Positions 3 to 4,692 of a stretch of DNA of 64,000 nt are shown here, piece by piece. Position numbers and translations under genes: made by a program. Each line of letters opens with the position of its first letter. Within the stretch, counting starts at the first letter, position 1. The stretch is from Clostridiales bacterium. Lineage in GTDB: Bacteria > Bacillota > Dethiobacteria > Dethiobacterales > Dethiobacteraceae. Under the pieces are notes generated by a model, which worked only from the letters and a program-made list of their open reading frames with translations, was not told where the DNA came from and searched no databases. The DNA is taken from positions 22,387 to 86,386 of the forward strand of contig JAGXRM010000018.1 in NCBI GenBank assembly GCA_018335855.1, read 5' to 3'.

Positions 3-989
3 GTAATATTTGCAGTGCCCAGCGATGTAGTTAAGGCGGACAATATAGAGGAGTTTTACTATAAGACTGCCCTGGGGCTATTGAAATGCAGGAATTTAAC
101 CTTGATTTCAGTCTGGAATCCAAGCTTCTTAATATTGCTTCTGAATTATATGGAGAAGAATGCAGAAGTGTTGGCAACGGATATTTCTGTTAAAAACAGG
201 AAGAGGGCTGTGGAAGTAAGGGGTTGCCTGAAGGAAAAGGCCTTTGAAAAGCTGTGGAAGAATCTAAAGGTGATAAGCTGTTGGAGCGATGGAAATGCAA
301 AGGCATACGCAGACAAGCTTAAAGAGATTTTCCCTCATTCAGTTATACAGCCCAAGGGTCTTCTTGCCACGGAGGGATTTGTGTCTTTTCCGATGTTGGA
401 GGCAGGAGGGGCGGTTCTTAGCATAAAGTCCCACTTTTTTGAGTTTGAAGCAGTGGATGACAGCAGAATATACCTAGCTGACGAGTTGGAAAAGGGCAAG
501 GAATACTCTGTGATATTGACTACTTCCGGAGGTTTTTACAGGTACAGGTTGAAGGATATTATTCAGGTGACAGGTTTCATGGAAAAGAAACCTGTCATTA
601 AATTCCTTGGAAAACAGGACAAGGTTTCCGATCTCTTTGGTGAAAAATTGAATGAAACCTTTATTAAGGTTACCATAGAAAGAATGGGAGTAGAAACAGG
701 TTTTTTCATGTTGGCCCCGGAGAAAAACAGGTATGTTCTGTACATTCAGGCAGAAAAAACAGCCCTTGCCGAAGGCCTTGAGGCTGCACTAAGAGAGAAT
801 TTTCATTATGATTACTGTAGAAAGTTGGGTCAGCTTAAACCATTAAAGGTTTTCCTGCTTACTGGAAATCCTGAAGAAGAATATCTTGAGGAATGTGTGA
901 GCCGTGGACAGCGGCTTGGGGATATCAAGCCGGTGGCATTGCATCTACAGGGCGGCTGGGATAAAGTCTTTAAGGGGGATTATTTATGA
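3..989 (+). CDS. GH3-family acyl-acid amido synthetase-like protein (5' end outside window)
   Basis: The frame is open to the left edge, so the N-terminus is missing; GH3 proteins are usually 500-600 aa and about 328 codons are visible. Family features are the segment LATEGFVSFPMLEAGG, then LTTSGGFYRYRLKDII, followed by KFLGKQDKVSDLFGEKLNE, which match the ATP-binding and C-terminal parts of the GH3 (auxin-responsive promoter) adenylate-forming family. Known members activate a carboxylic acid as acyl-AMP and often join it to an amine; the substrate here is unknown. The stop overlaps the next start by 4 nt (986-989), so it is coupled to the radical SAM genes downstream, suggesting a shared small-molecule pathway (inference). 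Family call is firm; the reaction is not. Confidence 0.85.
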   Translation, partial: VIFAVPSDVVKADNIEEFYYKTALGLLKCRNLTLISVWNPSFLILLLNYMEKNAEVLATDISVKNRKRAVEVRGCLKEKAFEKLWKNLKVISCWSDGNAKAYADKLKEIFPHSVIQPKGLLATEGFVSFPMLEAGGAVLSIKSHFFEFEAVDDSRIYLADELEKGKEYSVILTTSGGFYRYRLKDIIQVTGFMEKKPVIKFLGKQDKVSDLFGEKLNETFIKVTIERMGVETGFFMLAPEKNRYVLYIQAEKTALAEGLEAALRENFHYDYCRKLGQLKPLKVFLLTGNPEEEYLEECVSRGQRLGDIKPVALHLQGGWDKVFKGDYL

Positions 990-2323
990 AAATAGCATTC
1001 TTGGCTCCAGCCGGTGCCATGCATAGATACAACGGCAACTTTGGGAAGTCTCTTCATTATGCCCCCCTGACCCTGACAACATTGGCGGCGCTTGTTCCAA
1101 AAGAACTTGCTGCAGAAGTTGTTATCCATGATGAAACTGCAGGAAAAATACCGCTGGAGCTAGATGCAGACATGGTCTGCATAACCTGCATAACCGGAAC
1201 ATCTTCGCGGTGTTATGCATATGCAAACTATTTCAGAAGTTTAGGAAAAACTGTAGTCCTGGGAGGAGTACATCCTACTTTGATGCCAGATGAAGCTGCG
1301 GAGCATGCCGATGTTGTGGTTACAGGCTTTGCTGAGCAGAGTTTTCCCCAGATGCTACTGGATTACCAAAATGGAACTTTAAAGTCAAGGTATATCCAGG
1401 ACATAAACTTTACGATCAATAATAGGGTGACGCCAAGACGGGAGTTGCTTAATAGGAAAAGGTACATTACCATGAACAGCATTGAGGCTGTGCGCGGTTG
1501 CTCCCTACCCTGCACTTTCTGTGCATACCCTGCAGCCTTTGGCAAGACAGTGTACAAAAGGCCGGTGAAGGAGATTATCGCTGAGATCGAAGCGCTGCAT
1601 TCGAGGGAAGTGCTCTTCCCAGATGTGAATCTCATTGCTGACCGGGCTTTTGCCGTGGAACTGTTTACAGCATTGATACCCCTGAAAAAAATGTGGTTTG
1701 GACTCGTTACATCAGCTATCGGCATGGATGATGAGCTTATTTCACTATTTCAAAAGAGCGGTTGCAAAGGCCTTCTCATTGGCTTTGAGTCAATAAGTCA
1801 GTCTTCCCAGAAATTCATACACAAAGGCATAAACAAGGTTATGGAGTACGGTGAGCTTATGAAAAAGCTTCACAACGCAGGAATTGTTGTACAGGGATGC
1901 TTTGCCTTTGGTGGTGACGATGAGGATACTTCGGTCTTTGAGAGGACTGTGGAAATGGTAATTAAAACTAAAATAGACCTGCCGAGATATTCAATTCTTA
2001 CTCCCTTTCCGAAAACAGAATATTACGGACAGCTTGAATTGGAAAATAGGATTGTTGAAAGGGATTGGGCCATGTATGACGTTGAGCACTGCGTCTATAT
2101 TCCAAAGAAGATGACAAAAGATGAATTGGAAGCCGGCACAGAATGGGCCTGGAGGGAGACCTATACATTCAGCTCGATTTTAAAGAGGCTGGCACCTTTC
2201 AAAACCAGCCCCATTCTCGCTCTTTTTGTCAATTTAGGCTACAGAGGCTATGCAGGTAAATTTGCCACGTTCACAAGAGATGTTATGATTGATAATAGTG
2301 ACATCCCACAGGTGAACAGATGA
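986..2323 (+). CDS. Cobalamin-binding-domain radical SAM protein, copy 1
   Basis: This 445 aa protein has an N-terminal B12-binding-like Rossmann region (about residues 1-140, including VVLGGVHPTLMPDEAAEHAD) and a radical SAM core whose cluster motif is CSLPCTFC (CX3CX2C, near residue 173). The family uses SAM and a [4Fe-4S] cluster, usually with cobalamin, for methyl transfer or other radical rearrangements on unactivated carbons. Its ATG overlaps the GH3 stop by 4 nt and its own stop overlaps the next gene by 4 nt, so the three are translationally coupled. It resembles the next protein in length and layout, suggesting a divergent tandem pair working successively on one substrate (inference). 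Substrate cannot be read from the sequence. Confidence 0.92.
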   Translation: MKIAFLAPAGAMHRYNGNFGKSLHYAPLTLTTLAALVPKELAAEVVIHDETAGKIPLELDADMVCITCITGTSSRCYAYANYFRSLGKTVVLGGVHPTLMPDEAAEHADVVVTGFAEQSFPQMLLDYQNGTLKSRYIQDINFTINNRVTPRRELLNRKRYITMNSIEAVRGCSLPCTFCAYPAAFGKTVYKRPVKEIIAEIEALHSREVLFPDVNLIADRAFAVELFTALIPLKKMWFGLVTSAIGMDDELISLFQKSGCKGLLIGFESISQSSQKFIHKGINKVMEYGELMKKLHNAGIVVQGCFAFGGDDEDTSVFERTVEMVIKTKIDLPRYSILTPFPKTEYYGQLELENRIVERDWAMYDVEHCVYIPKKMTKDELEAGTEWAWRETYTFSSILKRLAPFKTSPILALFVNLGYRGYAGKFATFTRDVMIDNSDIPQVNR

Positions 2324-3651
2324 AGATTACATTTATTCTTCCTGCAATAGGTAAAAAGCCCGGACAGAAATATATCGGAACCTGGAAGATGGAGCCGCTA
2401 ACCATAGCGGTTTTAAAGGCGCTAACTCCGGAAGATATTGAAACTGAACTCTTCGATGACCGCATTGAGCTAATTAATTATGACACAAAAACAGATCTTG
2501 TAGCGATAACTGTTGAAACCTACACTGCAAAGAGAAGCTACCAGATCGCAGAAGAATTCAAAAAACGCGGCGTCACCGTCGTTATGGGAGGCTACCATAC
2601 AAGCCTGATACCTGAGGAAGCCGCTCTCCATGCGGATTGTATTTTTACAGGAAATGCAGAAAAGCTATGGGGTGAGTTGCTTAGGGATTTCAAGGAAAAC
2701 AGACTGAAAAAAATCTACAAAGGTGGCATCGCATTTTCAGATATCCCACCTGACAAAAGTATATTCACCGGGAAAAAATATCTCCCCATCTCTCTGGTGG
2801 AAACCGGCAGGGGCTGCTGCCATTCCTGTGAGTTCTGTGCTATTTCAGGCTACTATAATTGTACCTATTACAAACGGGCTCAGGCTAATATAATCACTGA
2901 TCTGGAAAAATCCCCATACAAATATCATTTTTTTGTTGATGATAACCTTATGGCAGATACAGCCAATGCTCAGGCACTTTTTGATAAGATAGCACCACTG
3001 AAAAAAAAGTGGGCTGGTCAGGGAACTCTTACTATGGCTCGGGATCCGGACCTGCTGAAAAGGATGAAAAAGAGCGGCTGTAATCTTATCCTGATCGGGT
3101 TTGAATCCCTTGAAGAAGAGAACTTAAGGCAGATGAACAAGTCTTGGAATATGGCCATTGGAGAACGGAATGAACTTGTAAAAAGAATACATGATGCAGG
3201 TATTGGCATCTATGCAACCTTTGTTTTTGGCTACGATGGTGATACTTCTGAAACCTTCCAGAAGACCTTAGAGTTTGCGGAAAAAAATAAGTTTTACACT
3301 GCGGCCTTCAATCATCTGCTGCCTTTTCCCGGCACCCCTTTATACAGAAGGCTGAAGGAGGAAGACAGACTTTTGTATGATAAATGGTGGCTTGAGGATG
3401 ATTATAATTACGGTGATCTTGCCTTCAAGCCCAAGAATATGTCTCCAGAGCAAATGAGCATGCTTTGCAGGCTTGCAAGAAAAGAATTTTCAAGACTACC
3501 TGTAACAATAGGCCGCGGTATCAGCAGCATGAGACAGACAAGCCCGCTTATGTGGGCGCTGTTCTGGGTTATGAATCTGCGCCTTGGTGAAGAAATTGAT
3601 GAGAAAATCAATGTTCCAATAGGGAGAAATTTGGATGAAATGCCGAAATGA
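2320..3651 (+). CDS. Cobalamin-binding-domain radical SAM protein, copy 2
   Basis: A 443 aa paralog of the preceding gene with the same architecture: B12-binding-like half (VVMGGYHTSLIPEEAALHAD, about residues 88-107), then a radical SAM core with CCHSCEFC (the CX3CX2C ligands) near residue 165, and FVDDNLMAD typical of the B12-rSAM group. It starts at the ATGA overlap with copy 1. The last 17 nt overlap the GNAT-like gene, whose ribosome site lies inside this coding region. Probable role is a cobalamin-assisted radical modification in the same pathway as GH3 and copy 1. Methylase versus other chemistry is unresolved. Confidence 0.92.
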   Translation: MKITFILPAIGKKPGQKYIGTWKMEPLTIAVLKALTPEDIETELFDDRIELINYDTKTDLVAITVETYTAKRSYQIAEEFKKRGVTVVMGGYHTSLIPEEAALHADCIFTGNAEKLWGELLRDFKENRLKKIYKGGIAFSDIPPDKSIFTGKKYLPISLVETGRGCCHSCEFCAISGYYNCTYYKRAQANIITDLEKSPYKYHFFVDDNLMADTANAQALFDKIAPLKKKWAGQGTLTMARDPDLLKRMKKSGCNLILIGFESLEEENLRQMNKSWNMAIGERNELVKRIHDAGIGIYATFVFGYDGDTSETFQKTLEFAEKNKFYTAAFNHLLPFPGTPLYRRLKEEDRLLYDKWWLEDDYNYGDLAFKPKNMSPEQMSMLCRLARKEFSRLPVTIGRGISSMRQTSPLMWALFWVMNLRLGEEIDEKINVPIGRNLDEMPK

Positions 3652-4540
3652 AAAATTTGCAATAAACCTCGCAAAACCCGAAGATGCAGGGCAACTGCTG
3701 AGAATATACGAATGTGGGGACTTTAAAGGAAATATTTCTGTCCTATACACACGACGGCCTGATCCCTTCAAGTCCTTATTGCTTGAAGGCGAAAAGGTGC
3801 TCATACCGATTATCACTGATAAAGAGAACGGCATTATAGTTGGAATGGGTGTTTGCATTATTCGGAAGGCTTATATCAATGGTAAAATAAGAAATGTCGG
3901 CTACCTGACAGGTCTGAAAGGACTACCTGAGTACAGAAAGCGCGTACCATTCATTTCCGAAGTTTATAAATATCTGCATGCGTTGACAAAAGATGATGTG
4001 GATATTTATTACACAACTATCTTAAAAGAGAATGAAAGTGTTCAGAAGATGCTAGAGAAGAAAAGAAAAAACATGCCTGAATACAGAAGCATAGGAGAAT
4101 ATACTGTATACTGCTTCAAAACCGGCACTTCACTGAAGGAAAAAGGTTACACTCTGGAAATTGGGAACATAACGGAACTGGAGCGACGATACAATGACGG
4201 TTCGGGTAGTTTTAACTTTTCACCGATTAATGTGAATCTACATGGGTTGCGAGACGAAGATACATATGTCCTCCGCAATCATACTGGAGAAGCTGTGGCG
4301 TCCTGTGCAGTCTGGAACCAGCAGAGCTACAAGCAGTATGTGATTACCCAATACAGGGGGATATACCGATATTTAAAAAGGTTTCCGCTGAAATTAACGG
4401 GTTATCCCAATCTGCCCCAAGAAAATATTCCTGCAAACTATGGAAGTATTGCGCTACTAACTGTCAAAGGTAATGATCCGCTATTGGCAGAGTATTTTAT
4501 CAGAAGAGTGGCCGAAAAATCGGAGAACTATGCCTTCTAA
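3635..4540 (+). CDS. GNAT-like acyltransferase, main reading frame (C-terminus frameshifted)
   Basis: A 301 aa frame beginning at ATG 3635, 8 nt after AGGGAG and 17 nt inside the previous gene. The N-terminal half (NLAKPEDAGQLLRIYE, later RNVGYLTGLKGLPEYRKR) resembles the two-domain GNAT proteins of about 350 aa seen beside uncharacterised biosynthetic genes. The frame ends at TAA 4538-4540, but the typical C-terminal sequence of such proteins continues directly in the -1 frame (4540-4692). One missing base near 4537 explains the break. Could be a real pseudogene, a TAATG-coupled two-part protein, or a sequence error. The acyl donor and acceptor are unknown. Confidence 0.7.
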   Translation: MKCRNEKFAINLAKPEDAGQLLRIYECGDFKGNISVLYTRRPDPFKSLLLEGEKVLIPIITDKENGIIVGMGVCIIRKAYINGKIRNVGYLTGLKGLPEYRKRVPFISEVYKYLHALTKDDVDIYYTTILKENESVQKMLEKKRKNMPEYRSIGEYTVYCFKTGTSLKEKGYTLEIGNITELERRYNDGSGSFNFSPINVNLHGLRDEDTYVLRNHTGEAVASCAVWNQQSYKQYVITQYRGIYRYLKRFPLKLTGYPNLPQENIPANYGSIALLTVKGNDPLLAEYFIRRVAEKSENYAF

Positions 4541-4692
4541 TGCTAGGTCTTTTTGAAAATCACCCATATATAAGTTCCATGGATAGATTAAAATGTATAA
4601 AGTACCAGAGCCGCCTATACACGGTTCATTGGCAGGGCAATTCCCTTACACTAGATAACAGACCGGTAAATCTTGAGGTTGGATTGCTTTAA
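4540..4692 (+). pseudogene. Displaced C-terminal segment of the GNAT-like protein
   Basis: A 50-codon frame beginning at an ATG that overlaps the upstream stop as TAATG. It encodes FENHPYISSMDRLK, then QSRLYTVHWQ and NRPVNLEVGLL, a tail expected for the preceding GNAT-like protein rather than an independent gene. It has no ribosome site of its own. Restoring one T near 4537 would fuse it to the 301 aa frame and give about 351 aa, a normal family length. Confidence 0.65.

What the first reader, a model, noticed from the sequence alone, without database searches (positions are those of the whole stretch)
3..4692. Coupled GH3 + two B12-radical SAM + GNAT cassette: candidate undescribed pathway
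Four genes overlap end to end (4, 4 and 17 nt). A GH3 acyl-adenylating amide synthetase, two tandem cobalamin radical SAM enzymes and an acyltransferase-like protein together suggest assembly and radical modification of an amidated small molecule or lipid. I know of no named pathway with this set.
Basis: partly seen in the sequence, partly recalled or inferred. Interest (0 to 1): 0.75.

Follow-up and report, generated by a model that had tools for sequence, protein, structure and literature searches.

The report
Oxygen-free fatty-amide gene cassette
A tightly packed set of five genes, found in the same order in distantly related bacteria, likely makes a fatty amide whose carbon chain would be remodelled without oxygen, using what is predicted to be a bacterial look-alike of the enzyme that attaches myristate to proteins in animals and fungi.

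Summary
In detail: a GH3 gene, two B12-type radical SAM genes and an acyltransferase gene overlap by 4, 4 and 17 nt. The window cuts the unit: upstream lie the rest of GH3 (513 aa in all) and a fifth gene, GNAT1. The order GNAT1-GH3-rSAM1-rSAM2-GNAT2 is complete in 6 of 11 distinct loci (five Bacillota genomes and a Citrobacter plasmid), runs to the contig end in 2 and is rearranged in 1. In Acinetobacter and Burkholderia GNAT1, GH3 and GNAT2 occur without rSAMs; Burkholderia has a fatty-acid desaturase and a Rieske oxygenase there instead. The 11 GH3s fall in one clade (100/100). GNAT2 is predicted with high confidence to fold like N-myristoyltransferase (NMT); its last residue sits where NMT keeps its catalytic C-terminal carboxylate, and 118 of the 120 relatives listed end in leucine. 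The window's own GNAT2 has lost that end to a frameshift. Best reading: an N-acyl-amide pathway in which GNATs and GH3 build the amide and B12-rSAMs edit the acyl chain without oxygen. The product is unknown, and I found no description of the set in the papers and family libraries searched.

The parts
3..989 (+). GH3 acyl-acid amido synthetase, C-terminal 328 of 513 aa (full gene L002:13835-15376, beginning upstream of the window; GNAT1 at L002:13123-13833 precedes it)
   Evidence: Pfam GH3 N, M and C; full length; three GH3 nucleotide-binding motifs conserved; one clade with the other cassette GH3s
986..2323 (+). rSAM1: B12-binding radical SAM enzyme, CX3CX2C cluster motif
   Evidence: Pfam Radical_SAM 59.4 bits, B12-binding 35.9 bits; 39-80% identical to the six others in alignment A9, cluster cysteines invariant
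2320..3651 (+). rSAM2: second B12-type radical SAM enzyme, CX3CX2C motif
   Evidence: Pfam Radical_SAM 50.0 bits, B12-binding 28.5 bits, below its cut-off of 32.1; 39-76% identical to the six others in alignment A10, cluster cysteines invariant
3635..4540 (+). GNAT2: predicted NMT-like tandem-GNAT acyltransferase, first 301 residues, ending early at a frameshift
   Evidence: Profile score 481.7 bits; relative P0241 models at pLDDT 92.1, with NMTs in 50 of 50 rows of the structural second look
4540..4692 (+). C-terminal 50 residues of GNAT2 in a shifted frame, ending LEVGLL, starting at an ATG that overlaps the GNAT2 stop
   Evidence: Same ending in intact relatives; 108 of the 120 listed end -GLL

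Best explanation
The first 4.7 kb hold the downstream part, from within GH3 onwards, of a five-gene unit (GNAT1, GH3, rSAM1, rSAM2, GNAT2) that keeps its order in distantly related bacteria and likely makes an N-acyl amide whose carbon chain would be edited by B12-dependent radical chemistry without oxygen. Shown: gene order, overlaps, families and recurrence. Predicted: GNAT2 has the two-domain fold of N-myristoyltransferase (NMT) and would use its own C-terminal carboxylate as the base that deprotonates an amine before it takes an acyl group from acyl-CoA or acyl-ACP. Inferred: GNAT1, a single GNAT domain, adds or passes a second acyl group; GH3 activates a carboxylic acid as the acyl-AMP and joins it to an amine, as plant GH3s and bacterial OlsH do; rSAM1 and rSAM2 methylate, cyclise or dehydrogenate unactivated carbons of the acyl part. 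Extra rSAMs in some loci, and a desaturase and Rieske oxygenase in Burkholderia, would be lineage-specific chain editors on the same GNAT1-GH3-GNAT2 core. In the window's own copy GNAT2 is broken, so this strain may make an unfinished product or none.
Against: No product, substrate or activity is known for any of the five proteins. No Pfam or NCBIfam model places GNAT1, and no Pfam NMT model matches GNAT2, so the NMT link is by predicted fold and C-terminus only, from a relative's protein. The fixed -GLL end belongs to the close relatives listed; more distant GNAT2s end -ALL (Citrobacter), -GTL (L060), -SDL (L018), -GRI (A. baumannii) and -YLV (Burkholderia). The rSAMs fall far below every named subfamily cut-off, so methylation, cyclisation or dehydrogenation cannot be told apart. 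A. baumannii has the GNAT1-GH3-GNAT2 core with neither rSAM nor desaturase in the 25 kb read. L016 and L017, inside the GH3 clade, lack the neighbours: L016 is truncated and alone; L017 starts at a contig edge and has no rSAM in the 2.5 kb downstream. Distant B12-rSAMs (25-27% identity) also lie 2-4.4 kb from cyanobacterial GH3s outside the clade in L020, L022 and L026, so GH3-rSAM proximity alone is not specific. No cobalamin riboswitch was found in nine loci. The window's GNAT2 is frame-broken.
Confidence: 0.55

Rival explanations
1. The product is a diffusible signal or bioactive fatty amide rather than a membrane lipid; it would be exported and later cleaved by an amidase.
For: In A. baumannii the same core sits with a LuxR-family (GerE) regulator, an amidase, HlyD, an MFS pump and an outer-membrane efflux protein. 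Sporadic distribution and plasmid carriage fit an accessory metabolite.
Against: Citrobacter carries a PAP2 phosphatase and a desaturase, which lean to lipids.
Confidence: 0.3
2. Peptide or protein lipidation: GNAT2 acylates a peptide amine as NMT does, and the rSAMs modify a ribosomal peptide.
For: NMT-like fold; a SPASM-type radical SAM protein precedes the cassette in L058; tandem GNATs acylate lanthipeptides such as nostolysamides (PMC13060382, start of abstract and passages seen).
Against: There is little room for a precursor gene inside the unit (most genes abut or overlap; gaps up to 123 nt), though flanks were not searched for small ORFs; I recall no role of GH3 in such pathways; the nostolysamide enzyme was matched by its authors to tabtoxin resistance protein, not NMT.
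Confidence: 0.1
3. GNAT2 is not an NMT-type enzyme but an ordinary tandem GNAT; the fixed C-terminus is structural.
For: No sequence-level NMT match in 50 members or in the PDB sequence searches; Foldseek's two best rows are GNAT acetyltransferases (3n7z, 2i00), NMTs coming third; GNAT2 of Burkholderia ends -YLV and of A. baumannii -GRI.
Confidence: 0.3
4. The window copy is decaying: a formerly useful cassette acquired horizontally and now losing function.
For: GNAT2 frameshift and a TupA/ModA-like gene (own reading) broken across frames just upstream of GNAT1; only one genus of 48 sampled in the class has the GH3.
Against: The other four genes are open and similar to relatives (rSAM1 80%, rSAM2 76% to L014); the frameshift could be an assembly error, and the TAATG arrangement could allow re-initiation.
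Confidence: 0.35

Closest known systems
OlsH, GH3-like lyso-ornithine-lipid synthetase of Singulisphaera (PMC12493201; NF052613)
   Same: GH3 family, same three nucleotide-binding motifs, expected ATP-dependent amide formation
   Different: 49.7 bits against a cut-off of 620; partners there are the OlsG methyltransferase and the hydrolase-fold OlsI, not GNATs and rSAMs (abstract, passages and section 6 read)
Eukaryotic N-myristoyltransferase
   Same: Two GNAT domains in one chain; last residue at the same structural position; in NMT that carboxylate is the catalytic base (PMC7048800, PMC4964394; passages read)
   Different: Bacterial; 10-14% identity in the rows shown; no Pfam NMT match; sits in a biosynthetic cassette; substrate unknown
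BchE, HpnJ and ladderane-type B12 radical SAM enzymes (TIGR02026, TIGR03471, TIGR04072)
   Same: Among the best-scoring named families for rSAM1 and rSAM2; B12-binding plus radical SAM layout
   Different: 56-92 bits against cut-offs of 360-578: none of them
N-acyl amino acid synthase FeeM and acyl-homoserine-lactone synthase LasI
   Different: Tied with many other GNATs, 13 and 10% identity; no Pfam family matches the first GNAT1 scanned, and only scattered weak matches among the 57

Membership tests
GH3 acyl-acid amido synthetases | GH3 N, M and C domains | tested here: met
   48.2, 66.8 and 32.9 bits, cut-off 23.6 each (on the 328 residues inside the window)
GH3 acyl-acid amido synthetases | Three nucleotide-binding motifs | tested here: met
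   SSGSTSASK, LLATEG and GGFYRYRLKD in the full protein; G106 S107 K112, T308 E309 and Y364 R365 Y366 D370 invariant in 15 rows, compared by eye with the motifs printed in PMC12493201 section 6
GH3 acyl-acid amido synthetases | ATP-dependent amide synthesis | not testable with these tools
   needs enzyme assay
OlsH (NF052613) | equivalog score of 620 bits | tested here: not met
   49.7 bits for the full GH3 of the window genome, 42.5 for Citrobacter
B12-dependent radical SAM enzymes | CX3CX2C cluster motif | tested here: met
   C172 C176 C179 (rSAM1 group) and C166 C170 C173 (rSAM2 group) invariant in seven rows each
B12-dependent radical SAM enzymes | B12-binding domain, rSAM1 | tested here: met
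   35.9 bits, cut-off 32.1
B12-dependent radical SAM enzymes | B12-binding domain, rSAM2 | tested here: inconclusive
   28.5 bits, below the cut-off of 32.1; best named families are B12-type rSAMs
BchE / HpnJ / rSAM_ladder_B12 equivalogs | curated score cut-offs 481 / 578 / 360 | tested here: not met
   81.8 / 79.9 / 68.2 (rSAM1) and 70.4 / 92.2 / 56.3 (rSAM2)
N-myristoyltransferase | two fused GNAT domains of NMT topology | tested here: met
N-myristoyltransferase | C-terminal residue at the catalytic site | tested here: met
   last model residue aligned with the last NMT residue in 48 of 50 rows; 118 of the 120 relatives listed end in Leu. The window's own copy lacks it in frame
N-myristoyltransferase | Pfam NMT sequence models | tested here: not met
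   no NMT model among the 23 families matched by the 50 members at E up to 1
N-myristoyltransferase | myristoyl transfer to N-terminal glycine | not testable with these tools
   needs enzyme assay

The most novel reading that the evidence does not exclude
Bacteria have their own family of NMT-type acyltransferases that use the chain's C-terminal carboxylate as catalytic base; they work with a GH3 amide synthetase and tandem B12-radical SAM enzymes in an undescribed, oxygen-independent fatty-amide pathway that moves between phyla as a cassette, with desaturases and Rieske oxygenases taking over chain editing in aerobes.
Probability: 0.35. Interest if true: 0.78.

Novelty: new variant of a known kind. 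Interest (0 to 1): 0.6.

Why it matters
It would add a lipid-amide pathway built on GH3 chemistry, for which the only characterised bacterial enzyme in the papers found here is OlsH, and show how anaerobes edit saturated chains where aerobes use oxygenases. A bacterial NMT-like family with a C-terminal catalytic carboxylate, a trait described as unique to NMT among GNATs (PMC4964394, passage read), would bear on where NMT came from and would offer a small bacterial model of it.

Tried and rejected
Rejected: an OlsH pathway (score far below cut-off, other partners); a named B12-rSAM subfamily; a cobalamin riboswitch upstream (none at gathering score in nine loci); near-identical copies of the Citrobacter cluster in E. 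coli or other plasmids (megablast: no match in 20,395 E. coli records; only itself among 72,556 plasmid records); a GNAT1-GH3 link for GH3s in general (15 other GH3 loci of the phylum, none with a GNAT1 or B12-rSAM hit at E up to 0.001). Led nowhere: the rSAM relatives in G031 and G046 (34% identity) lie in loci without the other cassette genes, as does the one in Acetoanaerobium; Azospirillum GNAT1 relatives (27-28%): none of those plasmid records is among the GH3 hits, and the one region read shows no GH3; paper searches pairing GH3 with radical SAM plus further terms, with Acinetobacter, with LuxR/amidase, or NMT with bacterial clusters gave nothing on this set (all ten searches used; GH3 with radical SAM alone was not tried). 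In the structural second look at GNAT1 many GNAT families tie, so no function was read from it; non-NMT tandem GNATs did not appear among the 50 rows for GNAT2, which does not exclude them.

Limits: loci from public contigs have uneven flanks; the GH3 collection scan used two short peptide patterns, so absence there says little; the protein hit lists show only the best 120 rows. GH3 tree: of 103 ORFs at E up to 0.001, 78 passed my filters (repeat loci skipped, E up to 1e-5, 380-700 aa); two rows were added by hand (the Burkholderia frame, and L017) and 15 rows from loci held twice were dropped, leaving 65. The tree has long end branches (Citrobacter, Acinetobacter) and rows of unusual composition.
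Full report
What is there. The window begins inside the GH3 gene. In the source contig (window = G000:C18:22387-86386) GH3 is 513 aa, and a further gene of 236 aa, GNAT1, ends 1 nt before it. The unit therefore has five genes: GNAT1, GH3, rSAM1, rSAM2, GNAT2. The last one stops early: its stop codon at 4538-4540 overlaps an ATG in another frame, and 4540-4692 encodes the C-terminal 50 residues that relatives carry in one piece. The closest of the 120 listed relatives, P0254 (86% identical over the 301 residues), is intact at 352 aa. Whether this is a mutation, an assembly error or a natural split is open; a TupA/ModA-like gene (own reading) upstream of GNAT1 is broken across frames as well.

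Conservation. A search with rSAM2 led to a Citrobacter portucalensis plasmid in which the same five genes stand in the same order (28, 37, 45, 43 and 29% identity), followed by two more radical SAM genes, a PAP2 phosphatase, a small protein and, on the other strand, a fifth radical SAM gene and a fatty-acid desaturase. The same order is complete in G001 (same genus as the window genome, other neighbours), L014, L018 and L061; it runs to the contig end in L058 and L059; in L060 the order is rSAM1-rSAM2-GNAT2-GNAT1-GH3. With Acinetobacter baumannii and Burkholderia arboris this makes 11 distinct loci. GNAT1 is next to GH3 in 10 of 11 and about 4.0 kb away in the other; GNAT2 is present in 9 of 11 (broken in the window, weakly matched in Burkholderia at E 3.1e-9), the other two contigs ending before its place; an adjacent rSAM1-rSAM2 pair is present in 8 of 11, L058 ending after rSAM1 and the two Proteobacteria without it. 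The NCBI locus numbers of a Desulfitobacteriaceae MAG (VN374_06645 GNAT1, VN374_06625 GNAT2, 8,916-base contig) also span five genes if numbered in fives.

Specificity. The GH3 tree of 65 rows puts all 11 cassette GH3s in one clade with support 100/100, together with L016 (a truncated lone copy) and L017 (the contig starts in the gene; no rSAM in the 2.5 kb downstream). None of the 52 rows outside lies in a locus with a GNAT1 hit, although some of those loci have flanks of 1.5 kb or less. Among 15 other GH3 loci of the phylum, fetched with longer flanks, none had a GNAT1 or B12-rSAM hit. Against full specificity, three cyanobacterial loci outside the clade (L020, L022, L026) have a distant B12-rSAM (25-27% identity) 2-4.4 kb from GH3. 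The cassette GH3 is rare: 4 of 398 genomes sampled in the phylum, the window's own included, and 2 of 97 in the class. The best-120 hit lists for GH3, GNAT1 and GNAT2 share identical longest-contig lengths 32 (GH3/GNAT1), 22 (GH3/GNAT2) and 20 (GNAT1/GNAT2) times and 12 times in all three, against 0-2 in offset controls.

What the parts are. GH3: the three nucleotide-binding motifs reported for plant GH3s and OlsH are present, with key residues invariant in 15 rows; the nearest solved structures by sequence are plant GH3s (best 6avh, E 2.3e-28). The nearest characterised bacterial enzyme found is OlsH, which makes N-acyl ornithine from ornithine and fatty acids (PMC12493201; abstract, section 6 and passages read), but the cassette GH3 scores 49.7 bits against OlsH's cut-off of 620. 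rSAM1 and rSAM2: cluster cysteines invariant, B12 domain above cut-off in rSAM1 and below it in rSAM2; BchE, HpnJ and the ladderane-type lipid family are among the best-scoring named families, all far under their cut-offs; among solved structures the closest is the apramycin enzyme 6fd2 (E 7.1e-20 and 6e-13). GNAT1: predicted at pLDDT 94.5 as a single GNAT domain; many GNATs tie, among them FeeM and LasI.

How it would work. In two Proteobacteria (aerobes, as I recall) the GNAT1-GH3-GNAT2 core stands without rSAMs. In Burkholderia arboris it is joined by a desaturase, a PF10118 protein and a Rieske oxygenase; in A. baumannii by a LuxR-family regulator, an amidase and an efflux set, with no chain-editing enzyme recognised. 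Citrobacter has both rSAMs and a desaturase. The simplest reading is that the core makes an N-acyl amide and the swappable oxidative enzymes edit the acyl chain: oxygen-dependent ones in aerobes, B12-radical SAM ones in anaerobes. This is inference; the substrates, the order of steps and the reaction type of each rSAM are untested. The window genome has CobS, so cobalamin may be made at home.

Known or not. No paper in the library searched held GH3 terms together with radical SAM and the further terms asked for; a search for B12-radical SAM lipid clusters in gut Clostridia gave none; none linked NMT-like bacterial acyltransferases with such clusters (one search gave only the nostolysamide preprint); the Acinetobacter and amide searches gave nothing on this set. 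Subscription papers are mostly not in that library, so prior description elsewhere cannot be excluded. I rate it a new variant of a known kind: N-acyl-amide biosynthesis, with a new combination of parts and a possible new enzyme family.

Noticed in passing
L092-L096, L103-L106 (nine loci of the window's phylum): A recurring three-gene unit: a small protein of 182-203 aa (PEMT-type methyltransferase in the one scanned), a distant GH3-like protein of 527-543 aa, and a large protein (7TM, GGDEF and HD domains in the two scanned; 659 aa in L095, 836-864 aa in the others). A GH3-type enzyme beside a c-di-GMP-type regulator.
   Followed up: partly
L057:5296-17004 (Acinetobacter baumannii): LuxR-family regulator, amidase, HlyD, MFS, GNAT1, GH3, outer-membrane efflux protein, GNAT2, SurE in one direction: could be a fatty-amide signal system.
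   Followed up: partly
L056:7232-14635 (Burkholderia arboris): GNAT1, GNAT2-like protein, PF10118 protein (other strand), desaturase, GH3 and Rieske oxygenase: a version of the core with oxygen-dependent enzymes.
   Followed up: partly
L058:269-1540: A SPASM-type radical SAM protein precedes the cassette in G243.
   Followed up: no
L002:11760-12900 (upstream of the window): TupA/ModA-like gene (own reading) broken across frames next to the cassette.
   Followed up: partly
L060:11731-11817: A c-di-GMP-I riboswitch (73.2 bits) lies about 2 kb downstream of the rearranged cassette in G201.
   Followed up: no
L019:165-4887 (Planctomycetaceae): GH3 (30% identity) directly after genes that read as argB, argD and argF (own reading), which would fit an amino-acid-lipid role for that GH3.
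   Followed up: no
L012:5957-7763 and L013:8940-10746: A solitary B12-rSAM (33-35% identity to Citrobacter rSAM1) next to a 154-aa protein in two genomes of the same class.
   Followed up: no
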